From positions 1 to 64,000 of the forward strand of contig DWWS01000050.1 in the NCBI GenBank assembly GCA_019119595.1: 64,000 nucleotides of DNA, in the 5' to 3' direction. Origin of the DNA: Candidatus Eisenbergiella merdavium. Lineage in GTDB: Bacteria > Bacillota > Clostridia > Lachnospirales > Lachnospiraceae. Shown piece by piece: positions 10,626-24,906 of the stretch. Each line of letters opens with the position of its first letter. The stretch's first letter is position 1. The notes beneath the pieces were generated by a model. The model saw only the letters and a program-made list of their open reading frames with translations. It had not been told where the DNA came from and made no database searches. The position numbers and the translations under genes were made by a program.

Positions 10626-11753
10626 TCAGCAGCCTTTCAGCCATCGGTTTATTAAGAACGCACAGAAATACGGAAATGTATGCACATCTTCACTGTACCC
10701 GATATTTCCTGCGCACAGCTTGATCCCCCATCGGATATCGCTGTATTTTTCACTGTCAATCAGTGTCCGCAGCGATTTAGACCGTCCGTTTGCCGCTTTG
10801 ACTTCCACAGGCACAAGACTTTCCTTTGTTCTTACAAAGAAATCCTCTTCCAGCGTAGAGTTTTCTTTCTTATAGTAGTATAATGCATATCCTGATTTGG
10901 CGAGCGCGTCGCCCACGATTTAAGGGCAATTCAGGAAATGACATACAGTAGCAGATATTGATCAGCCCTGCGTCCTGCAGCCACTCAATACAGCCTCTGT
11001 AATCCTTAAACCGGGCTCCATGAGCAACTTTTGATATCTGAAACTTCTTATTGTCTTTGGCAAGCTGCGGCGGGATCTGATTGAAAACATTTAATGTCCT
11101 CGTCTGATCCGGTCCCTGCGCATACTTTCTGATATCCTCCCGATAATCATTGATGAGCTGCCTCTGAATATCCAATGTCCCTTCGAAGGTTCCCTTGGCG
11201 ATATATTCCCGCACAACAGCCGGCATCCCGCCGAGAATACAGTAGTCAAGGAACAGCTCGCTACACATCGTCATCATGACAGAGCTGAGCGGCTTTTTCT
11301 CTGTCATGTGTGATAAAAGCTCCTCCGTGAAATCATCCCCGTATCCCTTCGCCCTCAGGAACTCCTCAAAGTCCATGGAATTCATCTCATATTCTTCTTT
11401 ATATCCCACGCTGTTGCTCTCAATCTGTTTATAATTGATCCCCAGAAGAGAACCGCTGCAGATCACATCATACCTGCCGTCTATGCGGAAAAATTTCAGA
11501 GCTGTTGCAATATCCGGGAAATCCTGTATTTCATCAAAAATAAAAATGCTGTCATTCTCTGTAAAACGCTTTGACGAATCAATGCGGGAAATATTTTTAA
11601 TAATATCATCCGTTTTGTATCCGTCCTCGAGTATCATTTTATATTTGGGTTCCTCAACAAAATTGATATAAATAACCTGTGCATAATTCGTATACCCGAA
11701 ACGGCAGACCGATTCCGTCTTGCCGACCTGCCTTGCCCCGTTTACTGCGTTCC
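10626..11753 (-). pseudogene. Decayed AAA ATPase/DUF4143 protein
   Basis: Fragments of the ATP-binding protein family with a C-terminal DUF4143 domain. The ATPase part has a Walker A GARQVGKT near 11712-11735 and a DEIQDFPDIA Walker B/sensor segment. An in-frame stop (11754-11756) precedes the Walker A, so the true N-terminus of about 25 residues is missing. Near 10914-10922 the reading frame jumps from PELPLN directly into IVGDALAKSG of the nuclease-like C-terminal part. Relatives have several dozen residues between these points, so an internal deletion with frameshift is likely. The C-terminal piece continues cleanly to 10626. No promoter was found. The family is often horizontally acquired and frequently decays. 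Confidence 0.85.
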
Positions 11754-11873: not shown

Positions 11874-14618
11874 TCAGCACTCCTTCAGCATCCGCTCCAG
11901 CTTTTCCAGCAGCGCTTCTGCCTTCTCCCCGCCCAGCCGGGATGCGGCGGCTCTCAGCGGAATCCCCTTCAAACGTTCCGGAAGCTGAGTGATCTGCGGC
12001 ATCATGCGCACCAGAACCGCTTTTGCTTTCGGATTTGCCAGCAGTCCGGCAAGCGTATCGTCGATTGACACCCTCTGATGCATCGGTTTCGCGGTCCGGT
12101 AAGAAAACTCATAGGATCCGGTCTGCAGCTCCAGCTCCTCCTCTTCGCAGAAGGGCAGGCTCAGCAGGGCGCTGCATCCAAACGGAACCGTGACCTCCAG
12201 ATGCAGATGCTCGTCGTCCACGATATCCCAGTGTATTTTCCACAGGCCCGCCGCACTGTGGTAGCTGCAGTCCAGGTTTTTCAGCTCCCATACAGGAGAC
12301 GGCGCGAGGCGGGCTTTTGTAAATCCCGGCTCCAAAGGCTGGAGCCCGGCCAGATGGCGGAACAGCCACTCCGCGACGGATCCGTAGGCATAGTGGTTCA
12401 GGCTGTTCATGCCCGTAGAGCTGAAATGTCCGTTCTCATCCAGGCTGTCCCAGCGCTCCCAGATCGTAGTAGCCCCCATCCTCACTTCATGCAGCCATCC
12501 AGGATATTCCTCATTGAGAAAAAGCGTCTCCGCCAGATCAGACATCCCGTGTTCTGAAAGCACATTGCACAGAAGCGGCGTTCCCACGAAGCCTGTGTCC
12601 AGCTTATTGTCATTTGAGGCAAGCTTTTTCCTGAGATCCGCGGCTGTCCTTGCCGGGTCCGCCAGACCATGGCGCAGCGCGAGGAGAAGCCCTGTCTGGG
12701 TCGGCACTGCACATCTTTCGGTCGGCGTAAAATATTCATCCCTGATCCGCTTTTCCAGAGCATCCGCCAGCGTCCCGTATTTCACGGCTTCCTCAGAATT
12801 CCCCAGCACCTCTGCCGTCCGGGACAGGATCTGCGCGCTGTAACGGTAGTAGATATCAGCGATGAAGCCTTCGTCCGTGGCTCCTCTGCACTCCCCCGAT
12901 TCTCTCCTTATCCTGTCCAGCGCCAGCCAGTCGCCGTAGTGGAAGGCCTTCCGCCAGCCGCAGGCATTCCCGTCCACCTCCGTAATATAGTCCACCCAGG
13001 CTTTCATAGAGGCAAACTGCTCCTCCAGAATCGTTTTATCCCCGGTAAACAGGTACAGCGTCCAGGGAATGATCGTGGCAGCGTCTCCCCACGCAGAGGA
13101 GGTTCCCTGTATGCCGCAGCTCGGCACCACATTCGGCACCTGTCCGCCCCTCTCCTGCTGTTCCGTATCGATATCATGCAGATACTTGCGGTAGAAGACA
13201 TATGTATCCGCAAGAAAACAGGCCGTGGGCGCAAAGACCTCCGCGTCTCCCGTCCATCCCATTCGTTCATCCCTCTGGGGACAATCCGTCGGTACATCGA
13301 TAAAGTTATCCAGCCTGCTCCATTCAATATTGGAGATCAGCCTGTTCACCAGCTCATTTCCCGTCTCCAGATATCCGATGCGCTCCATCCGGCTTGTATA
13401 GCAAAGCGCGGTAAAGTCTTCGGGATCCGGATTTCCGACTCCCTCCACCAACACATAACGTCCTCCGAAACAGGTAAACCGGGGACGAAGGACGACAGGT
13501 TCTCCATCGGAAATGTATACGAATTCCTCTTTTGCCGTACGCAGGTTTTCCCGGCAGAAACATCCGTCCTGAAGCTGCTCTCCAAACCGCAGCCTGAGCG
13601 TTCTGCCTTCCGGGATCTGTACCCGGTAAGCAAAGCTCCCTGCCATATTCTGTCCCAGATCAAACACCGTCTCGCCCGCAGGCGTATGTAAGAGTACAGG
13701 CCTGAGCGTCTTATGGACGATGACCGGAGGGCTGTAGCGTCCCGTCAGAGGGGCTTTCGGGCAGTCCTCCTCCGGGCACAGGAGCGCCGGGACCGCGGCT
13801 GTTTCCGGCAGAGTGGCATCCCATTTTTCCCCGTCATAGATGTTGGAAAAGACGATCCGGCTGCGCCTCACCGTCCAGCTCTCATCTGTCCCGATCACCG
13901 ATTCCGTTCCGTCCTCATAGCAAAGGCGCACCTCAGCGATCAGTTTGAAGTCATCGCCGTAAAAACCTTTTTCAGACTTCTCGAATCCGAAACGCCCTTT
14001 GTACCAGCCGTTTCCCAGAGTTACCGCAAGAAGACCGCCCTCCCGAAGCAGCTCCGTGACATCATAGGTCTGGTACTGCAGCCATCCGTTGTAATTATTA
14101 CAGCCGGGGGAAAGATACTCCTCCCCGACCTTCACCCCGTCTATCTCAGCTTCATACAGTCCGAGCCCGCAGATATAAAGCCTCGCGGCCCTGAGCTTCT
14201 TTTCAGGCAGGATCATTTTTTCAAAAACGGGATGTCGTTCCTCGCCGCCGTCCGTATTCCGGCAGGACGGACAGGTGATCCACCTGCCCTCCCACGGCTC
14301 CTCCAGCTTTCCCGTCTCAAACCACTGAATGGGGCTTACCGCCTCTTCTCCGGCATCCGATCTCACCGCAACAGTCCAGTAATATCTCGTTCGGGGCGTC
14401 ATCATAATATCCGGCGTATACCCCAGGGCCGTAATATCCCCGTCAAATCCGCTGTCCCACAGGGGCTCTTTCATATCTTCCCGGAGAGAGACGGCCACCC
14501 GGCTTTCCGCCGCTCTTTTTCCCCGGCTTTCCTCCACGCACCAGGTAAAGACAGGCTTTGGGATACTGTATCCCAGGGGGGTGAAAATATGATTCGTCTT
14601 ACCGTTTGTTATTCTCAT
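11874..14618 (-). CDS. GH78 alpha-L-rhamnosidase with C-terminal helical module
   Basis: Releases terminal alpha-L-rhamnose from glycosides. It has 914 residues and no signal peptide, so it acts in the cytoplasm. N-terminal beta-sandwich domains (to ~residue 410) carry VFDLGQNMAG (318-327). The (alpha/alpha)6 barrel follows, with the GH78 acidic cluster DCPQRDERMGWTGD (445-458, likely acid D450 or E451) and TIWERWDS, whose E721 is the likely base. A C-terminal beta domain ends near 845. Residues ~851-914 are an extra helical tail (DTLAGLLANPKAKAV...RMMP) resembling modules in the GH3 and GH2-GH43 proteins upstream. It is the last gene of the operon, 12 bases after the GH3 stop, with AAGGGG before the ATG. 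Confidence 0.93.
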   Translation of the reverse strand: MRITNGKTNHIFTPLGYSIPKPVFTWCVEESRGKRAAESRVAVSLREDMKEPLWDSGFDGDITALGYTPDIMMTPRTRYYWTVAVRSDAGEEAVSPIQWFETGKLEEPWEGRWITCPSCRNTDGGEERHPVFEKMILPEKKLRAARLYICGLGLYEAEIDGVKVGEEYLSPGCNNYNGWLQYQTYDVTELLREGGLLAVTLGNGWYKGRFGFEKSEKGFYGDDFKLIAEVRLCYEDGTESVIGTDESWTVRRSRIVFSNIYDGEKWDATLPETAAVPALLCPEEDCPKAPLTGRYSPPVIVHKTLRPVLLHTPAGETVFDLGQNMAGSFAYRVQIPEGRTLRLRFGEQLQDGCFCRENLRTAKEEFVYISDGEPVVLRPRFTCFGGRYVLVEGVGNPDPEDFTALCYTSRMERIGYLETGNELVNRLISNIEWSRLDNFIDVPTDCPQRDERMGWTGDAEVFAPTACFLADTYVFYRKYLHDIDTEQQERGGQVPNVVPSCGIQGTSSAWGDAATIIPWTLYLFTGDKTILEEQFASMKAWVDYITEVDGNACGWRKAFHYGDWLALDRIRRESGECRGATDEGFIADIYYRYSAQILSRTAEVLGNSEEAVKYGTLADALEKRIRDEYFTPTERCAVPTQTGLLLALRHGLADPARTAADLRKKLASNDNKLDTGFVGTPLLCNVLSEHGMSDLAETLFLNEEYPGWLHEVRMGATTIWERWDSLDENGHFSSTGMNSLNHYAYGSVAEWLFRHLAGLQPLEPGFTKARLAPSPVWELKNLDCSYHSAAGLWKIHWDIVDDEHLHLEVTVPFGCSALLSLPFCEEEELELQTGSYEFSYRTAKPMHQRVSIDDTLAGLLANPKAKAVLVRMMPQITQLPERLKGIPLRAAASRLGGEKAEALLEKLERMLKEC

Positions 14619-14630
14619 GAGATGCCCCTT

Positions 14631-16976
14631 TCACTCTGCTTTACCCTTGCCGTTCATTCGTTCAAACAGCGCCTTCCACTCTGACTCCGGCACATCGGAC
14701 GCCATGCGCATCACCGTCTGCAGGGGTTCCGCCATCAGCCCCATATTTTTTGGCATCAGCTCCTTATACGGCATGGTTTCCTGCGCTTTGTCCATCCCCA
14801 TGCGGCTGATGACCGCATTTACCCGAGGCATCAGCTTTTCCAGAAACGCTTTCCCTTCCGGGTGCTCCAGCGCGTCACAGACAGGCGTCATGATATCGTA
14901 CTGTCTGCCGTCCGGCAGATACTCAGCCTCTGCCTCCACGGCTCTGCGCAACACAATATCTTCCGCCGATCTCCCGATCTGTATCTCGTAGCTTCCGCCG
15001 GCCACTCGCCAGCCGTGAGCCTCCTTATCCCAATAGGAAAACGCTCTCCTGTCAAGCTGAAATTCCACCTTCTTACTCTCTCCCGGCTCAAGAAATATCT
15101 TTTCAAATGCGCGTAGCTCACGTATCGGCCGGCGCACTCCCGTATCGCCGAGGGAAGTCCCCACATAGAGCTGTACCAGCGCCCTGCCGGCGCGCTCCCC
15201 CGTATTTTTCACATTTACTGAGACTTTCAGCTTTTCTCCCGCCTTATAGGTATTCCGGCTTACCGTAAGATCGCTGTATGCAAAGGAAGTATAGCTTAAG
15301 CCGTGGCCGAACGGAAACAGCACCTCCGCCTTTTTAGAGGTATAATAGCGGTATCCTACAAAAACACCTTCCGGATATTCCACACGGTCTCCCTCTCCGG
15401 GCCAGAACAGGTAGCTCGGATTATCCTCGAGCCGAAGCGGAAAGGTTTCCGCCAAATGCCCGGACGGATTTATCCTGCCCGTCAGCACATCCCATATGGC
15501 TTCATTGACCGCCTCGCCGCCAAGATAGGCCTCCAGGATGGCCGCCGGGCGGTTCGCCCATGGCATCTCCACGGCTCCGCCGTTTTCCAGTACCACCACC
15601 GTTTTCGGCTGCACCGCGCATACCGCCTCGATCAGCTCATTCCAGCATTCCGGCAGCTTCATCGTCCAGCGGTCGAACCCTTCCGACTCCATCACGGAAG
15701 GCACTCCGGCAAGAATCACAGCAACGTCCGCATCCTTTGCGGCGGCGACGGCCTCTTTCCGCTTCTCTTTATCTTCCTGCACATCGGAAAGCGTTCCGTC
15801 ATAATAACGGACGTTCTCCATGCCCGCCGTCACCTCCGGAAGAGACGGAACCCGCCATGCGTTCACCCGCGAGGAACCGCTGCCCTGATAGCGGGGCTCT
15901 TTTGCAAAGGTTCCGATCACAGCGATTCTGGCCCGGGGTGAGAGCGGGAGGATATTTCCCTCATTTTTCAGAAGGACCATGGACTCCGCCGCCGCCCGCC
16001 TTGCCAGCGCATGACCTCTTTCAAAAATTTCATCCTCGCATTCCGGCGCGCTTTTCTCCAGACAGTCCCCGGCGCATTCCTTCGCATCGCTTCCGGCGCA
16101 TCGGAAGATCAGGCCAAGCAGTTCTTCACAGCGCGCGTCCAGCTCCTTCTCGTCAAGCCGTCCTTCCCGCACTGCCTCCACGATCTCATTATCATGGGCC
16201 GCATCTCCCGGCATGGTCAGGGCGCAGCCGCTCCTCACGGCCGCCGTCCTGTCATGGACCGCCGCCCAGTCGCTGACGACAGCCCCGTCAAAGCCCCATT
16301 CATCCCTTAAAAGCGTCTTCAGATAATCCGCGTTCTCCGTGGCATATACGCCGTTGATCCTGTTGTAGGAGGCCATAACAGACCAGGGCTTCGCCTCCTT
16401 CACCACTTTTTCAAAAGCGGACGCATAGATTTCCCGCATGGTGCGTTCATCCGGCTGAGAGTTCTCCGTCCGCCTGCGGCATTCCTGATTATTCGCTGCG
16501 AAATGCTTCAGACACACACCGATGCCTTTTTCCTGGGCCGCCTTAACAAAGGCCGCGCCAAGCGTTCCCGAAACGAGCGGGTCTTCGCTGTAATATTCAA
16601 AATTGCGTCCGCAGAGCGGGCTTCTTTTGATGTTGATCCCGGGGCCAAGGATGACCTGTACCCCCGCCGCCTTCCACTGTTCGGCCATAGTTTCTGCCAC
16701 CTCCGCAGCCAGAGCTTTGTCAAAGCTGCTTCCGAGGGCACACTCCGCGGGAAAACAGGTGGCGGGAATACTCTCGTTTTTCCCCATGAAATCCTGAGCT
16801 CCCACCTGTCTGCGCAGGCCGTGCGGGCCGTCCGCCAGCTCGATGGACGCGATGCCAAGCCGCTCCACCGCCTTGGTGCGAAAGGTGGTTTCTCCGGAGC
16901 ATAAAGAAGCTTTCTCCTCCAGAGTCATCTGCGCAGTCAGTTCCTTTATCCTTTCCCGATCTGTATGATCACTCAT
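14631..16976 (-). CDS. GH3 family glycosidase with C-terminal helical module
   Basis: Retaining exo-glycosidase, most likely a beta-glucosidase or related activity, 781 residues and cytoplasmic (no signal peptide). The N-terminal barrel contains RSPLCGRNFEYYSEDP, KHFAANNQE and the nucleophile D236 in VVSDWAAVH. The alpha/beta sandwich has MVLLKNEG and the likely acid/base glutamate in ESEGFDRW. FPFGHGLSYTSF and a fibronectin III-like domain follow. Residues ~693-781 are an additional helical tail (LEHPEGKAFLEKLMPRV) matching the operon's shared module. The start at 16976 overlaps the GH2-GH43 stop by 8 bases (ATGAGTGA), with GGAGG upstream, indicating translational coupling. Confidence 0.93.
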   Translation of the reverse strand: MSDHTDRERIKELTAQMTLEEKASLCSGETTFRTKAVERLGIASIELADGPHGLRRQVGAQDFMGKNESIPATCFPAECALGSSFDKALAAEVAETMAEQWKAAGVQVILGPGINIKRSPLCGRNFEYYSEDPLVSGTLGAAFVKAAQEKGIGVCLKHFAANNQECRRRTENSQPDERTMREIYASAFEKVVKEAKPWSVMASYNRINGVYATENADYLKTLLRDEWGFDGAVVSDWAAVHDRTAAVRSGCALTMPGDAAHDNEIVEAVREGRLDEKELDARCEELLGLIFRCAGSDAKECAGDCLEKSAPECEDEIFERGHALARRAAAESMVLLKNEGNILPLSPRARIAVIGTFAKEPRYQGSGSSRVNAWRVPSLPEVTAGMENVRYYDGTLSDVQEDKEKRKEAVAAAKDADVAVILAGVPSVMESEGFDRWTMKLPECWNELIEAVCAVQPKTVVVLENGGAVEMPWANRPAAILEAYLGGEAVNEAIWDVLTGRINPSGHLAETFPLRLEDNPSYLFWPGEGDRVEYPEGVFVGYRYYTSKKAEVLFPFGHGLSYTSFAYSDLTVSRNTYKAGEKLKVSVNVKNTGERAGRALVQLYVGTSLGDTGVRRPIRELRAFEKIFLEPGESKKVEFQLDRRAFSYWDKEAHGWRVAGGSYEIQIGRSAEDIVLRRAVEAEAEYLPDGRQYDIMTPVCDALEHPEGKAFLEKLMPRVNAVISRMGMDKAQETMPYKELMPKNMGLMAEPLQTVMRMASDVPESEWKALFERMNGKGKAE

Positions 16977-19900
16977 AATCCTCCATCCTCCACTCATCCT
17001 GCCATCTGATCCTCACTTTTTCCCCGTCGAATTCCAGCGGAAGCCACACATAATCCGCCGCGGAGGTATCGGCGCTTTCCAGCATGGGACTTTCCACCAC
17101 GATACTGCGCTCCTTTGGAGCGACAGGGTATTTGTCCGGCTCATACCTCGATGCGATGACCCGCTCGATGGTATCCGCCCGTTTTGCGTCCACATGGTAT
17201 CCCGGCACCCAGCGGTCCGCGATGGCAACATACAGCTCCTTTTTGCCCGGCACCCGGAACACCTGGGAGATCTGGCTGTTAAAGGAGGCGTTTGTCCCAT
17301 CGTCCACATGCGGATTTCCCTGGCTGACAAAAGGCTCCGTCCAGGCATCCGACACGGCGGAATCACTTTTGTTGGGAATGTATCCCGTCATGCCCGAGGT
17401 CAGCATATATTTTCTGCCGCCTCGCTCAAAAAGCGTGATGCCCTCCCGGCAGAACGGCGGGTGCAGATTCTCATACTGTTTTGAAATCACGCCCACGGCC
17501 TCCAGATAGTCAGCGCTCAGCTCCATTCCCACAACGCCCGCATGATCCGCATCCATAAACAGGAAGCATTTCCCACCTTCCTCCTTTACCATGTCGAAGT
17601 CTCCCACCTTCATGCCGAAGGGACGGTAAGCTTCCTTCACCACTCTGTAGGGCCCTGCAAAGGCGTCCGCCTCCAGAATCAGGAAGCATGCCTCATCGCC
17701 GGACTGCTTGATCCAGCATACATATTTTCCGGTGGCATCGCATTTTACAATATGGGGACGATCCACATGCTTTTCCGGATAGAGCCCTGCCTTCTGATTC
17801 TCCAGGTCGGGTCTGATGATCAGCCCCATATCCTCCCAGTTGTACAGATCCGTGGATCTGTAGGCACGGATTCCCCATGTCCAGACCGGCGATTTTCCGT
17901 CCGTACGATCCTTATTCTCCCCGTACCAGTAATAGACGCCGTCCTCGTAAAGCACCGCTCCCGCGTGAGCCTGGATCCGCTTCCCTTCCGTGTCGCGCCA
18001 CACCCGTCCCGGATAAACGGCATTTCTTTTCTCTCCGCGGACAATCTTTGCCGCCTCAGGGGTCAGCGGCTGTTCCTCCGTGTAGCCTTCCTCCTGCTCC
18101 GCATAGATTTCCAGAGCCTGAAGCGCTTTGTCCAGCTCTTCCGCCGTCTTCTTTGGCACCGCCCCTTTGGAAAATGCGACGAGCTGGCCGAGAGAAAATC
18201 CGAGTATGGAGGACTGACCCTCTACTTTGGAACGCATTCCCGGCAGATAACGGTCAAACAGTCCGCGGCTCTCCTCATGTGCGAAAATCTGACTCAGACG
18301 GGATTCCATGGAAAGCTCAAGCTTACGGTAAGCCTTCTCCTTCTTTGGCTTCTCGAATTTCTGCAGCGCAGCGTTTAACGCTTTTATCTGCTCAGGCAGG
18401 AGCGCGTCGCCCGCCTGCTTCAGCAGGCTCTCCAGAGACATCCCCGCCATCATCTTCTGCAGGGCCGCATTCTGATTTGCCGCCTTCGCCACATCTCCCC
18501 GGCTTGCGGCAACCTTCTCCATCATCCTGTTGATGATGGCTCCTGTTCCGGGATGGGCAGTCAGCTCTCCCAGGGTATCCTTAATGGAGTAATATCCCTC
18601 TTTCAAATCCTCTTTGTCAAACCAGTTCGCAACGTCGCCTTTCCTGCCAAGGCTGTAGGCAGGATCCGCCTCTGACACCCTCCGGATCACGATCTTATCT
18701 GTGCACACACCGTCCGCTGTCCTGGCAGAGCAGCTGCCGCAGCCTTCCCCTGCCTGTGCGGTGATCTCATGACTGCCTGTAAGCGGAATCTCAAACCGGA
18801 AAATCTTATCTCCCGTCTTTGTCTCAGCTTCCGCTCCGTCCACTGTCAGAGTGACAGTGGGCTGGTTAGAATACACCCTGATCTCAGCCCTTTCTCCGAC
18901 CCGGTTCTCATATCTCCTGCCGCAGATATGGACAAAGGGCTCCCTGCTCCAATACGCCTTATACAGATAGAATGCGTCCTTCTTCAGTTTCCGGTCAAAG
19001 CTTACCAGACCTTTCTGGTTGACTCCTCTCCTTCCTCCTTCGTCACGTCCGTCCGCCGCGAAATCAAACATGTTCCAGACATGGGACGCCCAGATATAAG
19101 GTCTTTCTGTGAGCATCTTCAGGATATGCTCGTGATAAACGCACTGATAGCTCTCCGTATAATCGCCCTTTTCGGGAGCAGCGCTCTGAAACCGGGGATT
19201 TGCGTCCGCTCCGTATTCGGAGAAACCGATCGCCCTGTCAGGATATGCGGCATGATATCTGTCGAAGAATTCCTCATTCTGCCCAAGCTCTCCCAGATAC
19301 CATCCATAATACAGATTGTAGCTGTTGATATCCGGAATGGCGAGTATCTCATCCTCCGGCTCCAGCATGAATACATTTGCCATTGCCGTCGGCCGGGTTT
19401 TATCCAGACTGTGGCACAGCTCATTCAGCAGGCGATGATTTTCGAGCAGATCCTCCTTATCCTCAACCGGGCTTGCCGTGATTTCATTGGAAAGCCCCCA
19501 GCACACGATAGAGGGATGGTTATAATTCTGGATCACAAGCTCTTTCATCTGGGAGAGCGTGTTCTCCCTGCCCTGCGGCATATGCTGCGTGATGTACGGG
19601 ATCTCCGCCCATACGATCATCCCCGTCTCATCGCACAGATCATAGAATTCCTGCGCGTGCTGATAATGAGCCAGGCGGATGGTGTTTGCCCCCATCTCCC
19701 GGATGATCGCCATATCTTCCTCGTGTTCCTTTCCTGTCAGGGCATTTCCCAGCCCCTCTCTGTCCTGATGGCGGCTCACCCCCCGCAGGGGATATGGCTT
19801 CCCGTTCAGAAGGAAGCCCTTTTGAGGGTCTATCTCAAAGCTGCGGCAGCCAAAACGCGTCTCCACTCTGTCGCCGCTCTCCAGAACTGCCGATGCCGTA

Positions 19901-20601
19901 TAAAGATAGGGATCCTCCAGGCCGTTCCATAAATGCACATGCGGAATGGATATGACCACATCAGCACAGCCATCCTTTATGACAGCCGTTTTCTCCGCGC
20001 CTTCCATGCCTTTTGTGCCTTCTGCGCTTCCCGCGACGCGGACAGCGACAGCGCAGCCCTCCGCGTCCTCCGCATAAACGGTGATCTCCACTTCCGCGCT
20101 TTCTGATCCTTCTGCCACATGCGGGGTCACCCTGATCCCCTCTGAGCCCCAATATCCAAGGGCAAAATGTGCCGCGGGAACAATGACCAACCGCACCTCA
20201 CGGTAAAGTCCTCCGTAGAAGGTAAAATCTGCCTTCTGCGGATATACCCTGGTATTCTCGCTGTTATCCACCGTGATCCGAAGCGTATCCTTTCCGGTCA
20301 GATGATCCGTCAGATCGGCACGGAAGGCGGAGTAGCCTCCCTCATGCCGTGTGATCTCCTCCCCGTTCAGATACACAGCGGCGCTCATGGCCGCTCCGGT
20401 GATCTCCAGCCATACACGTTTTCCGTCCTCCGGCTTTGGAAGCTCAAGCTCGCGGGTATAGGTACACATCCCTCTGTAATAGTCATTGCCGCCGTCCTGC
20501 CCGTCCACATTGTTCCACGTATGAGGCAGGGAGACGATCTTCTCAGCTTCCCCGGGCTTCTCAAATTTCCAGTTTTCGTTCAGGGATATTATATTTCTCA
20601 T
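16969..20601 (-). CDS. GH2-GH43 fusion glycosidase with two internal helical modules
   Basis: A 1210-residue cytoplasmic fusion. The start at 20601 (MRNIISLNENWKF) is preceded by GAAGGA; a 7-codon longer start is less likely. Residues ~1-555 form a GH2 enzyme: sugar-binding, sandwich and TIM-barrel domains, acid/base E373 in GLSNE and nucleophile E462 in GFSEYGAD, as in beta-galactosidases and beta-glucuronidases. After a beta domain (to ~650), two tandem helical modules occupy ~673-750 (DTLGELTAHPGTGAI..RMM) and ~761-835 (RLSQIFAHEESRGLF..YLP). Residues ~860-1193 form a GH43-like propeller, with HAGAVLYEDGVYYWYGEN and CREGITLFE; this most resembles the exo-beta-1,3-galactanase-like GH43 group. 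Substrate is inferred only. Confidence 0.9.
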   Translation of the reverse strand: MRNIISLNENWKFEKPGEAEKIVSLPHTWNNVDGQDGGNDYYRGMCTYTRELELPKPEDGKRVWLEITGAAMSAAVYLNGEEITRHEGGYSAFRADLTDHLTGKDTLRITVDNSENTRVYPQKADFTFYGGLYREVRLVIVPAAHFALGYWGSEGIRVTPHVAEGSESAEVEITVYAEDAEGCAVAVRVAGSAEGTKGMEGAEKTAVIKDGCADVVISIPHVHLWNGLEDPYLYTASAVLESGDRVETRFGCRSFEIDPQKGFLLNGKPYPLRGVSRHQDREGLGNALTGKEHEEDMAIIREMGANTIRLAHYQHAQEFYDLCDETGMIVWAEIPYITQHMPQGRENTLSQMKELVIQNYNHPSIVCWGLSNEITASPVEDKEDLLENHRLLNELCHSLDKTRPTAMANVFMLEPEDEILAIPDINSYNLYYGWYLGELGQNEEFFDRYHAAYPDRAIGFSEYGADANPRFQSAAPEKGDYTESYQCVYHEHILKMLTERPYIWASHVWNMFDFAADGRDEGGRRGVNQKGLVSFDRKLKKDAFYLYKAYWSREPFVHICGRRYENRVGERAEIRVYSNQPTVTLTVDGAEAETKTGDKIFRFEIPLTGSHEITAQAGEGCGSCSARTADGVCTDKIVIRRVSEADPAYSLGRKGDVANWFDKEDLKEGYYSIKDTLGELTAHPGTGAIINRMMEKVAASRGDVAKAANQNAALQKMMAGMSLESLLKQAGDALLPEQIKALNAALQKFEKPKKEKAYRKLELSMESRLSQIFAHEESRGLFDRYLPGMRSKVEGQSSILGFSLGQLVAFSKGAVPKKTAEELDKALQALEIYAEQEEGYTEEQPLTPEAAKIVRGEKRNAVYPGRVWRDTEGKRIQAHAGAVLYEDGVYYWYGENKDRTDGKSPVWTWGIRAYRSTDLYNWEDMGLIIRPDLENQKAGLYPEKHVDRPHIVKCDATGKYVCWIKQSGDEACFLILEADAFAGPYRVVKEAYRPFGMKVGDFDMVKEEGGKCFLFMDADHAGVVGMELSADYLEAVGVISKQYENLHPPFCREGITLFERGGRKYMLTSGMTGYIPNKSDSAVSDAWTEPFVSQGNPHVDDGTNASFNSQISQVFRVPGKKELYVAIADRWVPGYHVDAKRADTIERVIASRYEPDKYPVAPKERSIVVESPMLESADTSAADYVWLPLEFDGEKVRIRWQDEWRMEDYE

Positions 20602-20641
20602 GATCTTTTTTCCTTCTTTCATAAGCTGCAGCCATACGGCA

Positions 20642-23116
20642 TCACAGAATCACTTCCGTTTTTGCCATTAACATGACCCGAAGCACCCTGGCAGCGCTCC
20701 TCCTTATGCATTCCTGCGATATGAGCCCCTCATGCATGGCTTTCCTGATCGCCTCCGCCTCCTCCGCCGAGCCCGGCATCACGATATCATTTCCTGCCGG
20801 AGCGCATTTCACAGCGTCTGCCGCAGAAGCGTTACAGCTCCCCCAGTCCGTCATCACAAGTCCCTGATAGCCCCATTCGCACCGCAGGATGTCCGTGAGC
20901 AGGTCGTGACTGTTCGGCGCATAGACATGGTTGATCCTGTTGTATGAGCTCATCAGGCCATGGGGCTGCGCCTCCTTCACCGCATATTCGAATCCCCGCA
21001 GATGAATCTCCCGCAGGGCACGCTCGCTTACATTGCTGCTGCTGTGGTTTCTGTTATCCTCCGCATCGTTGCAGGCAAAATGCTTGACAACCGTGCAGAG
21101 TCCCTCCGTCTCCTGGACACCCCGGGTAACGGCGGCAGCGCATTTTCCTGACAAAAAGGGATCCTCGCTGTAATACTCAAAGTTTCTGCCGCCCAGAGGA
21201 TTCCTGTGGATATTCATGCCCGGCGCGAGCCAGAGGGTAATGCCGAACGTCTCCATCTCCCTGGCTGCGGCTCTGCCGATCTCCTCCAGCAGCTTCAGAT
21301 TCCAGGACTGGGCAAGCAGCATCTCCACCGGCCATGCCGTGGCATAGCGGTACACGATCCGGCCTCCCTCCGGAATCATTCTGGCCGCATAGGCCCTCAT
21401 CATCCCCCAGTTGTAACGCTCGGGAATGACCGCGACGGCAAACCTTCCGTCGCCCATGTATTTTACCTTATTGGCAATGTTGATCCCCGCAGGGCCGTCG
21501 GACATGACCACATTCCGTATGCCGTCCTGAAGGAGGGCCGTTGTCGTCTTGCCCCCGGCGCCGGATATCTCAAGAGCGCCCTCCGGCGGTCTCTGGAGAT
21601 CGCCGCCCCGAAGGAATTCCACCCATTTGTCCGGGCCGAGCCTGTCCAGGATCACCCTCTCTTCCTCCGTCTCAATAAACTGCGGTTCGCTGTAGTCCGC
21701 CTGTTCTACGGGAACCGACTCCGCGTCCAGCAGAAGAATCGGAATATCTCTGAGATCCTCCGCACAGTCTGCCCGTACATTCTCCGGCACGAAATCCTCA
21801 AGCACGTCTGTCGGCGTACACTTGTTCGCGCACTGCATGGTGATGATGTCCTGCTTCACTCTTACGACAGCAGCGGGAGACGTATTCCTCGAGGAATTGC
21901 CCGTTCTTATGATATAGTCTCCCCGCTCCAGCACCCAGGCGGCTCTCTCCTCGTCATAGGATGCCATCTGTCTGACATCAATGGAAATCTCCGCCTCTTC
22001 ACTTTCCCCCGGCGCAAGCGTTCCAGTCTTGGCGAATCCCGCCAGGCTCTGATATTCTTTGGCAAGCTTCCCCTGCGGTGCAGACACATATGCCTGCACC
22101 ACCTCTTTGCCCGCATATTGCCGCCCCGTGTTCGTCACGCGCACGGCAAGCCTGATCCTGTCAGTGTCCAGCGCCGCCTCCCGGCACTCCAGAGCAAATG
22201 ATGTATAGGACAATCCATATCCGAAGGGATAACGGACTTCCTTTTGAAAGCTGTCGTAATAGCGGTATCCCACATAGATGCCCTCATGGTACTCCTCGTT
22301 GTCCGGATCGCCGTTCAAATAGGAGAATCCATCCCCGAACGGCACATCCTGATAGTCCCGCATCAGGGTGGAGGCGAGCTTTCCGGAAAAATTCACTTTT
22401 CCGGAGATCAGCTCTGCCAGGGCGTTTCCGCCCTCTTCCCCGCCCTGCACAAAATATACCACCGCGTTGATCCCCGGAATCTCCTCCGCAAAGCTCAGAT
22501 CCATACCGCCGCCTACATTAATGATCACGATCGTATGTCTGTAAGCGCTTCCCACCTTCTTAAGATGCTCCCGCTCCGTATCGGTGAGAAGATAATCTCC
22601 CGGCTCAAGCCTGCGGTCATTCCCTTCTCCTGCCTGCCGCGTCAGGACATAGATGCAGGTATCCGTATCGCTTTTTCTGATATCCTCATCCGTAATGGCC
22701 CTTCCGCTGGGATAACGGTACACATAGGAGTGGGCCTTTGGTATGATCTCCATGGGATTCGTCATACCTTTGATCTCTTCTTCCACCATGCTCACATAGG
22801 CCTGATACGTTTCCTCATACTCTTTGTCGTAGTCGTCCAGCCACAGCTGACTTGTGATCTCATATCCCGCGTTCTTCAGCCCTTCCTCGATGGTCACGGA
22901 ATAGCGCTCTTCCACACTCCCGCTTCCAAGGCCTCCCTTTACCGTTCTGCGCGCGCCCATACCGTAAAGCGCGATCTTTCCGGAAGCGAGCGGAAGGGCG
23001 CCGTCATTTTTCAGAAGGACGATGGATTCCTCCGCCGCCCACCGCGCAAGCTCCCGGTTCGCAAGCTCAGCTGCCGTTTCTTTTTCATCGAAATATCCGT
23101 ATATTTTTTCTTCCAC
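20642..23116 (-). CDS. GH3 glycosidase with swapped domain order
   Basis: An 824-residue GH3 enzyme in which the alpha/beta sandwich precedes the barrel. Residues ~25-310 form the usual C-terminal domain, with SIVLLKNDGALPL, GEGNDRR (163-169, likely acid/base E164) and YPFGYGLSYTSF. A fibronectin III-like domain follows (~320-410). The barrel is last (~500-810), with AGMSDGPAG-type sequence SDGPAGIN, GGRNFEYYSEDP, KHFACND and the nucleophile D757 in VMTDWGSCN. Such inverted GH3 enzymes are known from rumen Butyrivibrio and Ruminococcus. It starts with GTG, 17 bases after the importer stop. Unlike its neighbours it carries no helical tail. Probable beta-glucosidase. Confidence 0.92.
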   Translation of the reverse strand: MEEKIYGYFDEKETAAELANRELARWAAEESIVLLKNDGALPLASGKIALYGMGARRTVKGGLGSGSVEERYSVTIEEGLKNAGYEITSQLWLDDYDKEYEETYQAYVSMVEEEIKGMTNPMEIIPKAHSYVYRYPSGRAITDEDIRKSDTDTCIYVLTRQAGEGNDRRLEPGDYLLTDTEREHLKKVGSAYRHTIVIINVGGGMDLSFAEEIPGINAVVYFVQGGEEGGNALAELISGKVNFSGKLASTLMRDYQDVPFGDGFSYLNGDPDNEEYHEGIYVGYRYYDSFQKEVRYPFGYGLSYTSFALECREAALDTDRIRLAVRVTNTGRQYAGKEVVQAYVSAPQGKLAKEYQSLAGFAKTGTLAPGESEEAEISIDVRQMASYDEERAAWVLERGDYIIRTGNSSRNTSPAAVVRVKQDIITMQCANKCTPTDVLEDFVPENVRADCAEDLRDIPILLLDAESVPVEQADYSEPQFIETEEERVILDRLGPDKWVEFLRGGDLQRPPEGALEISGAGGKTTTALLQDGIRNVVMSDGPAGINIANKVKYMGDGRFAVAVIPERYNWGMMRAYAARMIPEGGRIVYRYATAWPVEMLLAQSWNLKLLEEIGRAAAREMETFGITLWLAPGMNIHRNPLGGRNFEYYSEDPFLSGKCAAAVTRGVQETEGLCTVVKHFACNDAEDNRNHSSSNVSERALREIHLRGFEYAVKEAQPHGLMSSYNRINHVYAPNSHDLLTDILRCEWGYQGLVMTDWGSCNASAADAVKCAPAGNDIVMPGSAEEAEAIRKAMHEGLISQECIRRSAARVLRVMLMAKTEVIL

Positions 23117-23133
23117 CGTCCTTCACCTTTCCT

Positions 23134-24906
23134 TTACATTTTTCTCTTTGCCGCCTTTGCCTCCGCTTTGGACTTCTTCGCGGCACGCTTTTCCAGAACC
23201 TTTTTATTCTCTGTCTCGAAATCCAGGCCCTTTTTCGCACAGGTTTCCTTAAGCTCTCTGATACGGATCTCCTCGGCAATCTTCTCCTGCTCTTCGATCT
23301 CTCTGCGCTCCAGCTCTTCTGCCGGTATGTACTCGATCCCCTTTGCCGCACATTCCGCGACCTTGCGCTCCTGAAGCTCCCTTGACACTTCCGGCAGATG
23401 CCGTTCAAGGTCAAACAGGAAGCAGAATACCGCAAATATGACAATTCCGATCATGATATAGGTTCCCTGATAGGCGAAGTTGATCCAGCCCGATGCCGCA
23501 GCCGGCTGATCCGCATAGAGCGCGATCCCGGACGCATCGGTGCCGATCTGAACCGGCTGAAGATAGCCGGTGGCCATGAGCCCCAGATTGAACAGCCCCT
23601 GCGCGATTCCTACGGCAAACATCATGCCGGCGCTGTATATACCGCCGGAAAGTCCGTCACAGCGTACCTTTGACTTCCACTCCACATGGTCGATCACATC
23701 TCCCAGGAAGCTTGGCATGGTGTAGTTGAAGAACAGGGAGCCGATGCCTCCCAGCGCCGTACCGATATAGATCATCATCCTGCTGCCCGGGTTGAGAAAA
23801 GCGACCACTGAACCGACTGCCGTCAGCGTTCCGCCCACCCAGATACAGCGGGTACGTCCCCATTTTTTCACAAGAGGCAGCAGAAGCAGGATGCCCGGGC
23901 CCATGGGCGAAAGGGCGATCATCTGGAATGCCGCCTGAAGCGACGCCGCCTGTCCGTAGGCGTTCCCCTGAAGGACCCATCCTGAATAGTAAATCAGAGA
24001 AATGTTGCGCATATTGGACAGGATATTGGTGATGAAAATAACCAGAATGAAAAAGATCCAGTACTTATCGGCCAGACACGCCTTCGCCTGCTTTAAAAGG
24101 GACGCCTCCTCATGGATCTCCGCTTTCTCACTGCCGCCAACGATACCCGTCTGACCGCGGCGTTCCTCCGTCACACGCTCGCGGGTATAAAAGTACTGAA
24201 CAAAGGTACAGCATAATCCCAGGATCCCGAATATCGTCATACTGACGAGGTATCCCTTTGCGTTGTCCCCATTGAACGCGGCACAGACAGATGCAAGAAT
24301 CGTGGGGAACAGGATCGAAACCAGCCCGGTGCCCGCCTGGCCTACGATGGTAGCCGCAAGAGACAGGTTCTTGCGCTGGCGGACATTGCGGGTCGATACG
24401 GCCGGCATCAGCTCCTTGCTCACATTCCACATGGTGTATGCCACGGAATAGTAGAGATTAAACATGATCACGATCCATAACGCCTGATACAGCGGCCTCT
24501 GGAAGGGCATCCAGAACAAAAGGATGATACACATCACGATAAGCGGTGCGGAAATGATCAGCCACGGTCTCACCTTTCCCTGTTTACATACTGTGGAATC
24601 AATGACCTTGCTCATGATCAGATTCGTTACCGCATCGATCATCTTCGATGCCAGCGGAAATGTGACCATAAAAAGTCCCATCCACGCGATCTTGTCAGAT
24701 GTGAAGCCAAGCACGTCGGTAAGGTACTGATTAAAATAGCTGTTGACGATGGAGCTTGTCATCATCATCCCCCACACGCCCAGAACATAGCCAAGCCACA
24801 TTTCCTTACGCGTGGTATTGGCGGATCTGATACGGGTATCCCACCGCGAGCCGGTGAGAGCGTTTGCCAGCAGCCCCTTCTTTTTGGAGACCGTATTTGT
24901 TTCCAT
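23134..24906 (-). CDS. GPH-family sugar:cation symporter with charged cytoplasmic tail
   Basis: Membrane importer of the glycoside-pentoside-hexuronide family (LacS/MelB type), 590 residues. About 12 membrane segments span residues ~40-500, with family features such as SKVIDSTVCKQGKVRPW after the second helix pair and KWGRTRC. It probably brings in the glycoside that the four downstream enzymes digest. After the last helix (~505) come about 85 highly charged residues containing two related copies of an (E/T)(C)AxKGh(E/D)(Y/F) motif: ECAAKGIEY and TCAKKGLDF. The tail ends in a lysine/alanine-rich stretch, and its role is unknown. First gene of the operon; AGGAGG precedes the ATG. Confidence 0.9.
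   Translation of the reverse strand: METNTVSKKKGLLANALTGSRWDTRIRSANTTRKEMWLGYVLGVWGMMMTSSIVNSYFNQYLTDVLGFTSDKIAWMGLFMVTFPLASKMIDAVTNLIMSKVIDSTVCKQGKVRPWLIISAPLIVMCIILLFWMPFQRPLYQALWIVIMFNLYYSVAYTMWNVSKELMPAVSTRNVRQRKNLSLAATIVGQAGTGLVSILFPTILASVCAAFNGDNAKGYLVSMTIFGILGLCCTFVQYFYTRERVTEERRGQTGIVGGSEKAEIHEEASLLKQAKACLADKYWIFFILVIFITNILSNMRNISLIYYSGWVLQGNAYGQAASLQAAFQMIALSPMGPGILLLLPLVKKWGRTRCIWVGGTLTAVGSVVAFLNPGSRMMIYIGTALGGIGSLFFNYTMPSFLGDVIDHVEWKSKVRCDGLSGGIYSAGMMFAVGIAQGLFNLGLMATGYLQPVQIGTDASGIALYADQPAAASGWINFAYQGTYIMIGIVIFAVFCFLFDLERHLPEVSRELQERKVAECAAKGIEYIPAEELERREIEEQEKIAEEIRIRELKETCAKKGLDFETENKKVLEKRAAKKSKAEAKAAKRKM

What the first reader, a model, noticed from the sequence alone, without database searches (positions are those of the whole stretch)
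11874..20601. A shared small helical module attached to three unrelated glycoside hydrolases of one operon
Four copies of a ~65-90 residue alpha-helical module occur in one operon: the C-terminus of the GH78 protein (residues ~851-914), the C-terminus of the GH3 protein (~693-781), and twice in tandem inside the GH2-GH43 protein (~673-750 and ~761-835). Each has a first part matching a pattern like L-x(2)-[LI]-x(2)-[HN]-[PE]-x(3)-[AG]-hydrophobic(2)-x-[RK]-hydrophobic(2)-P, for example DTLAGLLANPKAKAVLVRMM, LEHPEGKAFLEKLMP, DTLGELTAHPGTGAII and RLSQIFAHEESRGLFDRYLP. Most are followed by a second amphipathic stretch. The catalytic folds are unrelated, so the modules were added separately or spread by recombination. 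No enzyme has a signal peptide. They may therefore assemble into a cytoplasmic multi-enzyme particle, or dock to the importer's charged tail, to channel glycosides. Seen: the repeats. Inferred: the role.
Basis: partly seen in the sequence, partly recalled or inferred. Interest (0 to 1): 0.85.

Follow-up and report, generated by a model that had tools for sequence, protein, structure and literature searches.

The report
Shared helical module on unrelated glycosidases
Several unrelated sugar-cutting enzymes of one bacterium carry the same small helical add-on domain; it belongs to a wider, uncatalogued domain family that also forms the tail of drug-reactivating gut enzymes, where cutting the tail off weakens the enzyme.

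Summary
In detail: four copies of one homologous ~65-85-residue helical module sit in three glycosidases of one operon (GH78 C-terminus, GH3 C-terminus, two in tandem in GH2-GH43). A profile of GH2 tails from other species ranks exactly these four first among 615 window ORFs, two of them only weakly. Neither Pfam nor NCBIfam gave a consistent match. The module is not special to this operon: I found it on GH2, GH3, GH78, GH43 and GH13 enzymes, an esterase-like protein, an SDR and a STAS-APH protein, and as small free-standing ORFs. Copies resemble copies on the same enzyme family (89 of 92), so they travelled with their enzymes and did not spread inside the operon. The tandem is a fusion scar: relatives have a GH2-module gene followed by a module-GH43 gene. 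The GH2 copy lies in the C-terminal domain of FMN-binding beta-glucuronidases; removing that domain from one of them lowered activity eightfold (PMC9377255). I favour a lid or accessory role at the enzyme's own active site. A multi-enzyme assembly is possible but less likely: among neighbouring ORFs with intact C-ends, only 2 of 35 GH78 and 5 of 35 GH3 bear the module.

The parts
11877..12068 (-). Module copy at the C-terminus of the GH78 enzyme (residues 851-914)
   Evidence: HMM 1.8e-9, 9.4e-9; 1.9e-4 with a GH2-only profile without window rows
14646..14897 (-). Module copy at the C-terminus of the GH3 enzyme (residues ~701-784)
   Evidence: HMM 2.9e-15; 4.5e-7 with a GH3-only profile without window rows; helices predicted at 706-710, 713-732, 734-740, 759-765, 771-782 in a poor model
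18352..18588 (-). Module copy a of the GH2-GH43 protein (residues 679-757): C-terminal module of the GH2 half
   Evidence: HMM 1.6e-30; the family profile matches PDB 7kgz at 1.7e-27; AF2 mean pLDDT 77, pTM 0.65
18109..18312 (-). Module copy b of the GH2-GH43 protein (residues 771-838): N-terminal module of the GH43 half
   Evidence: HMM 8.1e-11; 3.4e-11 with a GH43-only profile without window rows
16969..20622 (-). GH2-module-module-GH43 fusion protein, 1217 aa; the GH2 half is closest to FMN-binding beta-glucuronidase 7kgz and has an N-x-K motif (NQK)
   Evidence: Pfam; phmmer 1050 bits to 7kgz; motif
14631..16997 (-). GH3 enzyme, 788 aa (GH3 N, GH3 C, Fn3-like, module)
   Evidence: Pfam; best NCBIfam model exo-alpha-L-arabinopyranosidase, below its cut-off
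11874..14618 (-). GH78 alpha-L-rhamnosidase, 914 aa, with C-terminal module
   Evidence: Pfam
20642..23116 (-). GH3 enzyme with inverted domain order, no module (same gene run)
   Evidence: Pfam (GH3_C at 32-304, before GH3_N at 583-814); no module hit
23134..24906 (-). GPH-type sugar symporter at the head of the gene run, no module
   Evidence: Pfam MFS_2; TIGR00792 below cut-off; no module hit

Best explanation
The four segments are copies of one homologous, uncatalogued helical domain that is attached, usually once per protein and at a terminus, to enzymes without signal peptides that act on small glycosides in Clostridia and related Firmicutes. Each enzyme family carries and inherits its own version. 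The tandem pair arose when two neighbouring genes, GH2-module and module-GH43, fused. Most likely the module works in cis: it packs loosely beside the mouth of the active site of its own enzyme and helps to hold or admit substrates with a bulky non-sugar part, a mobile lid or gate. Shown here: homology, distribution, inheritance with the enzyme, fusion. Shown in print for the GH2 version: removal of the C-terminal domain lowers activity. Inferred: that the versions on GH3, GH78 and GH43 do the same.
For: Homology tests. The window GH2 half is of the FMN-binding beta-glucuronidase type (1050 bits to 7kgz), and the module profile matches the C-termini of 7kgz, 8ges, 8get, 6mvh, 6mvg and of the GH3s 7ms2 and 8j9f (E 1.7e-27 to 3.4e-4), with 6mvf at 0.025. 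PMC9377255 (passages): a stop after residue 644 of Rh2 GUS (6MVH) cut specific activity on mycophenolate glucuronide eightfold, and AlphaFold models of related enzymes place this domain outside the active site, perhaps as a gate; the module spans ~663-754 of that protein by the numbering, so the cut removes linker plus module (my inference). PMC8748916 (passages): the same domain (~150 residues, so larger than the module) matters for triclosan glucuronide in Rh3 and is mobile in crystals. A module-bearing GH3 type, PSTG, is intracellular and splits a lignan triglucoside (PMC3622683, passages). No column is conserved at 90% in 41 diverse members, and 15 columns are at least 90% hydrophobic in 92 members, as in a packing domain rather than a catalytic one. 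Nearest module is on the same enzyme family in 89 of 92. mod-GH43 starts 6-19 nt after a GH2-mod stop in 11 of 14 named loci; fused in the window and L096.
Against: No coordinates were examined; the lid position rests on published models of one enzyme family. My full-length GH3 model was poor (mean pLDDT 62), so I could not see where the module sits. Free-standing ~70-residue modules and modules on an SDR and a STAS-APH protein are not explained by a glycosidase lid. The place differs (N-terminal on GH43 and GH13, C-terminal on GH2, GH3, GH78). Some polar residues do reach 60-75% in the 92-member set (P, R, G, D, E, N; 56 of the 92 are GH2). Module genes cluster more than at random (4 of 36 genomes, 0.52 expected), which also fits joint action. 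PMC8748916 says the critical motifs of this domain are undefined.
Confidence: 0.5

Rival explanations
1. The module is a docking or pairing domain: modules on different enzymes bind one another and hold the GH2, GH43, GH3 and GH78 enzymes together in the cytoplasm.
For: GH2-mod and mod-GH43 are neighbouring genes whose modules face each other across the gene boundary in 11 of 14 named loci, and they are fused in two genomes. 14 of 18 GH43 ORFs in the GH2-mod loci bear the module. 4 of 36 other genomes with two or more module ORFs have a pair within 10 kb, 0.52 expected at random placement; L080 has GH3-mod, esterase-mod and GH78-mod in a row. In the window's genome 3 of the 4 module-bearing GH2/GH3/GH78 proteins lie in this gene run (hypergeometric P 0.003, but the window was chosen for this). 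Small free-standing modules exist.
Against: In the 80 loci plus the window, GH78 and GH3 ORFs with intact C-ends bear the module in only 2 of 35 and 5 of 35 (one further GH78 tail seen by eye). In 32 of 36 genomes no two module ORFs lie within 10 kb (fragmented assemblies hide some). Genes for glycoside use cluster anyway. Rh3 GUS crystallised as a dimer with this domain unresolved; PSTG behaves as a homotetramer. No module on the symporter.
Confidence: 0.22
2. The module makes homo-oligomers: it contacts the same module or the active-site region of the neighbouring identical subunit.
For: PSTG, a module-bearing GH3 type, is estimated as a tetramer at 310 kDa by gel filtration (PMC3622683, passages); helical domains with a hydrophobic conserved core often do this (general knowledge).
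Against: Rh3 GUS forms its dimer in crystals while this domain is unresolved, so it does not hold that dimer together; many GH3 and GH2 enzymes without the module are oligomers too (general knowledge).
Confidence: 0.2
3. The resemblance is chance or convergence among amphipathic helices; the four segments are not homologous.
For: Two of six direct pairs are not significant; with a GH2-only profile the GH3 and GH43-side copies reach only 0.11 and 0.26; no column conserved at 90% in 41 diverse members; Foldseek gave no significant match.
Against: The GH2-only profile still ranks exactly the four segments first among 615 ORFs, and GH3-only and GH43-only profiles find theirs at 4.5e-7 and 3.4e-11; profile-profile 96.8-99.5% from GH2 to GH3, GH43 and GH78; reversed-ORF decoys give no hit; in the census of 167 copies every host matched one of five glycosidase families.
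Confidence: 0.03

Closest known systems
C-terminal domain (CTD) of FMN-binding gut beta-glucuronidases (PDB 7kgz, 6mvh, 6mvg, 6mvf)
   Same: Module copy a of the window belongs here: the GH2 half gives 1050 bits to 7kgz and the module profile 1.7e-27.
   Different: In the passages I saw it is described only for these GH2 enzymes, as large (~150 residues), variable and unresolved; here it is one member of a family also found on GH3, GH78, GH43, GH13 and other proteins. In the window it is internal, between GH2 and GH43.
C-terminal tail of GH3 beta-glucosidases 7ms2 (C. thermocellum) and 8j9f/9lql (PSTG1)
   Same: The module profile matches their last ~75 residues (9.8e-8 and 3.4e-4); five of the six best Foldseek rows are chains of these two, though none is significant (E 1.5-3.9; rank 2 is an unrelated ketopantoate reductase).
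   Different: The window GH3 copy has its own loop and motif. I found no paper that describes this tail as a domain.
DUF1858 (PF08984), a small domain with a conserved cysteine pair
   Same: Short-type module profile against 29 DUF1858 sequences: hhalign 64%, E 6e-5 over 59 columns; 20 column shuffles at most 1.6%, reversed 0.4%.
   Different: In global mode the same comparison gives 21.5%. GH2, GH43, GH78 and GH13 versions alone gave under 1%, GH3 12%. No cysteine pair in the module, no Pfam hit. A lead only.
Dockerin/cohesin-type enzyme-assembly modules (recalled)
   Same: Small helical domains repeated on unrelated glycosidases.
   Different: No signal peptides here; no Pfam dockerin match; no receptor domain was looked for beyond the gene run.

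Membership tests
C-terminal domain of FMN-binding beta-glucuronidases (for module copy a) | GH2 catalytic part of the FMN-GUS type | tested here: met
   phmmer 1050 bits to 7kgz over residues 8-758; N-x-K motif present (that this motif marks glucuronidases is recalled)
C-terminal domain of FMN-binding beta-glucuronidases (for module copy a) | Homologous C-terminal module after the GH2 core | tested here: met
   Module profile hits 7kgz 654-732, E 1.7e-27
C-terminal domain of FMN-binding beta-glucuronidases (for module copy a) | FMN bound by the enzyme | not tested
   FMN-site residues were not compared
Same domain family: GH3, GH78 and GH43-side copies | Significant sequence-profile similarity to the GH2 version | tested here: met
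   Profile-profile: GH2-GH3 99.5%, GH2-GH78 97.8%, GH2-GH43 96.8%. With a GH2-only profile on the window: GH78 1.9e-4, but GH3 0.11 and GH43-side 0.26, so those two rest on profile-profile evidence
Same domain family: GH3, GH78 and GH43-side copies | Same three-dimensional fold | tested here: inconclusive
   One fair model (GH2a), one poor (GH3) with a similar helix order; GH78 and GH43-side copies not modelled; Foldseek not significant
DUF1858 (PF08984) | Match to the Pfam model | tested here: not met
   DUF1858 is not among the 18 families matched by any of 28 modules at E up to 10 (HMMER filters drop most matches above 0.1)
DUF1858 (PF08984) | Conserved cysteine pair | tested here: not met
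   The DUF1858 rows shown carry CxxC; the module rows printed do not
Any Pfam or NCBIfam family | A model covering the module | tested here: not met
   28 modules: each of 18 Pfam and 15 NCBIfam families matched by 1 of 28 only, best E 0.009 and 0.013; no NCBIfam hit for 4 free-standing ORFs
Multi-enzyme scaffold or docking system | Module on most enzymes of the assembled pathway | tested here: not met
   GH78 2 of 35 and GH3 5 of 35 with intact C-ends, although GH43 14 of 18; in the window 3 of 4 enzymes have it
Multi-enzyme scaffold or docking system | Physical binding between module-bearing enzymes | not testable with these tools
   Needs co-purification or complex prediction

The most novel reading that the evidence does not exclude
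The module is a general plug-in adaptor of anaerobic Firmicutes, used both fused and free-standing, that joins at least eight unrelated protein types and pairs enzymes through module-module contact; the head-to-tail GH2-module / module-GH43 gene pair and its fusion in this genome are the fossil of such a contact, and the drug-reactivating FMN-glucuronidases work as part of small cytoplasmic enzyme assemblies.
Probability: 0.18. Interest if true: 0.85.

Novelty: new variant of a known kind. Interest (0 to 1): 0.6.

Why it matters
The C-terminal domain of FMN-binding gut beta-glucuronidases matters for drug reactivation but was described (PMC8748916, passages) as mobile, unresolved and structurally unknown. 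Linking it to a family that also sits on GH3 enzymes, one of which (7ms2) is probably resolved through that tail, gives a structural template and residues to test. A domain without a Pfam or NCBIfam model, shared by at least eight protein types and sometimes free-standing, is also a clear gap in annotation, and the GH2-module/module-GH43 junction lets the cis-lid and docking ideas be told apart by simple experiments.

Tried and rejected
Rejected: spread of modules by recombination within the operon (nearest neighbours follow the enzyme family). Rejected: internal tandem duplication (copies a and b belong to the GH2 and GH43 lineages; separate genes in relatives). Rejected: DUF1858 membership (no Pfam hit, no cysteine pair), kept as a distant-kinship lead.

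Led nowhere: Foldseek (14 matches, none with E<=0.001; where on the target they align is not shown); full-length GH3 model (mean pLDDT 62); papers on the structures 7ms2 and 8j9f/9lql (the one paper that names 7ms2 uses it only as a nearest-structure label, passages); a paper naming a shared helical domain of these enzymes (three papers listed, none opened; no paper).

Hits judged false and dropped: C1:76216 (E 0.67; by eye its frame ends like a signalling protein); L083 (an AMP-binding enzyme with the match inside the catalytic part); L068, L087, L091, L092 (by eye); L069 (not recovered); L216 and L217 (no hit with the refined profile).

The hypergeometric figure uses 33 proteins (18 GH2, 8 GH3, 7 GH78 over cut-off).
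Full report
WHAT IS THERE. On the minus strand, window 24906..11874 reads as one run of genes: GPH-type symporter, GH3 of inverted domain order, GH2-GH43, GH3, GH78; that it is one operon is inferred from spacing and strand. No Pfam or NCBIfam match covers them, and scanning 28 modules one by one gives only scattered single hits.

IS IT MORE THAN CHANCE. Direct pairwise similarity is clear for GH78-GH2a and GH78-GH3, modest for GH2a-GH2b and GH2a-GH3, and not convincing for GH78-GH2b and GH3-GH2b. A profile from 54 GH2 tails, without window or L096 rows, ranks exactly the four segments first among 615 window ORFs (1.6e-32, 1.9e-4, 0.11, 0.26; the next is 1.6), so the GH3 and GH43-side copies are weak in that test alone; a GH3-only profile gives 1.6e-12 for GH2a, 4.5e-7 for GH3 and 0.22 for GH78, and a GH43-only profile 3.4e-11 for GH2b. 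Profile-profile comparison of the five host-family versions gives 90-99.5% in 9 of 10 pairs, the exception being GH78-GH13 at 6.6%; column-shuffled controls stay at or below 4%. Those rows had been gathered and aligned with a common model, which favours agreement. Reversed ORFs gave no hit at E<1 against 107 real hits.

HOW WIDE. In its own genome profile A2 finds five copies in four proteins: the three of this gene run and a GH3 on another contig; among the GH2, GH3 and GH78 loci of the genome only these carry it (about 18 GH2, 8 GH3 and 7 GH78 proteins). Genomes with a match, the window's own counted in: 20 of 150 in the family with the first profile, 56 of 295 in the order, 9 of 299 and 15 of 398 across the phylum, 37 of 344 in the order with a short-type profile. 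Profiles and thresholds differ, so these are not comparable rates. 251 stretches in named genomes encode relatives of the GH2 version; the 80 kept come mostly from metagenome bins labelled Lachnospiraceae, Oscillospiraceae, Erysipelotrichaceae/Solobacterium and others. In a combined set of 167 copies, 117 are GH2-mod, 25 GH3-mod, 16 mod-GH43, 4 in the two fused proteins, 3 GH78-mod and 2 mod-GH13; GH2 dominates partly because the named loci were fetched with a GH2 query. Later hits add more GH78, an alpha/beta-hydrolase (BD-FAE-like) with a C-terminal module (L080), an SDR with an N-terminal module (L220/L254), a STAS-APH protein with a C-terminal module (L262), and four small ORFs of 72-78 residues that are little more than the module (L255, L258, L259, L260). 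L255 is the weakest of these: 0.007 with the profile that first found it, 0.004 with the refined one. In L259 the small ORF follows an SDR gene on the same strand; in L258 an SDR gene lies next to it on the other strand; L260 and L255 show no such neighbour.

HOW IT CAME ABOUT. In a set of 92 modules below 80% identity (window copies kept regardless), the nearest neighbour sits on the same enzyme family in 89 cases against 39.5 expected; one of the three exceptions is the window GH78 copy. So modules were mostly acquired per enzyme family and inherited with it. In 11 of 14 named loci with mod-GH43 (after removing duplicates) the GH43 module begins 6-19 nt after the stop of GH2-mod; in the other three they lie 8-9 kb apart. 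Of the 80 loci and the window, only the window and its close relative L096 have the two fused. The tandem pair is thus a fusion junction.

WHAT IT MAY DO. The window GH2 half matches 7kgz (Rh3 beta-glucuronidase) with 1050 bits, and the module matches the C-termini of 7kgz, 8ges, 8get, 6mvh, 6mvg, 7ms2 and 8j9f, with 6mvf at E 0.025. PMC8748916 (passages) reports a ~150-residue C-terminal domain of FMN-binding GUS enzymes as mobile and unresolved, important for triclosan-glucuronide cleavage by Rh3, and variable between Rh2 and Rh3 (27% identity). PMC9377255 (passages) reports an eightfold loss on mycophenolate glucuronide when Rh2 (6MVH) is stopped after residue 644, and AlphaFold models with the domain outside the active site, perhaps as a gate. 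By the numbering the module spans about 663-754 of that protein, so that truncation removes linker and module (my inference). A module-bearing GH3 type, PSTG, is intracellular, tetrameric and splits a lignan triglucoside (PMC3622683, passages); that it is the enzyme of 8j9f/9lql rests on the entry title. In 92 members 15 columns are at least 90% hydrophobic; polar residues reach 60-75% at a few columns, in a set where 56 of 92 are GH2, and no column reaches 90% in 41 diverse members; this argues against catalysis. The AF2 model of copy a is helical with fair confidence (pLDDT 77, pTM 0.65). Five of the six best Foldseek rows are chains of 7ms2 and 9lql, but at E 1.5-3.9, with an unrelated chain at rank 2, so this is not evidence on its own. 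7ms2 has 745-750 of 755 residues in its chains, so its module (680-754) must be largely visible. I therefore favour a cis-acting accessory or lid.

THE ASSEMBLY IDEA. For it: facing modules at the GH2/GH43 gene boundary, the fusion, the module on 14 of 18 GH43 ORFs near GH2-mod genes, clustering of module genes in 4 of 36 other genomes against 0.52 expected, three modules in a row in L080, and free-standing modules. Against it: of neighbouring GH78 and GH3 ORFs with intact C-ends only 2 of 35 and 5 of 35 have the module by profile (one more GH78 tail, in L096, by eye); these lie within about 10 kb and are not all proven operon partners. The best-studied members are a dimer (Rh3) and a homotetramer (PSTG). 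The symporter has no module. I give it about 0.2.

DISTANT KINSHIP. A short-type module profile aligns over most of its length with DUF1858 at 64% (E 6e-5; shuffles at most 1.6%), but at 21.5% in global mode; other versions gave 0.1-12%, and the cysteines are absent. A lead, not a membership.

LIMITS. No coordinates were examined; only one fair model was obtained; the paper library lacks the original FMN-GUS paper. That the shared family is unnamed in print rests only.

Noticed in passing
window 16969-20622: The GH2 half is of the FMN-binding beta-glucuronidase type and is fused to a GH43; in a number of named relatives a GH78 ORF begins within about 1 kb after the GH2 module, which suggests substrates carrying both glucuronic acid and rhamnose, such as saponins (inference).
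   Followed up: partly
window 20642-23116: GH3 enzyme with inverted domain order (GH3_C and Fn3-like before GH3_N), no module.
   Followed up: no
L258 10024-11271 and L259 4061-5284: A ~410-residue protein family with no Pfam or NCBIfam match near free-standing module ORFs and SDR genes, with a GcvT-like gene in L258.
   Followed up: partly
L262 5761-7287: STAS domain, APH-like domain and C-terminal module in one 509-residue ORF; small ORFs downstream look STAS-like by eye.
   Followed up: partly
L080 1-5518: Three consecutive ORFs (GH3 fragment at the contig edge, BD-FAE-like esterase, GH78), each ending in a module copy.
   Followed up: partly
module profile hits: Ketopantoate reductase turns up three times at insignificant scores: Pfam ApbA_C 0.024 and an NCBIfam model 0.033 for one module each, and Foldseek rank 2 (3hwr, E 2.7). 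Possibly a shared helical layout, possibly chance.
   Followed up: no
window 10870-11637: A 255-residue ORF that reads by eye like part of an ATPase of the AAA/DUF4143 kind, perhaps truncated (recalled resemblance, not tested).
   Followed up: no
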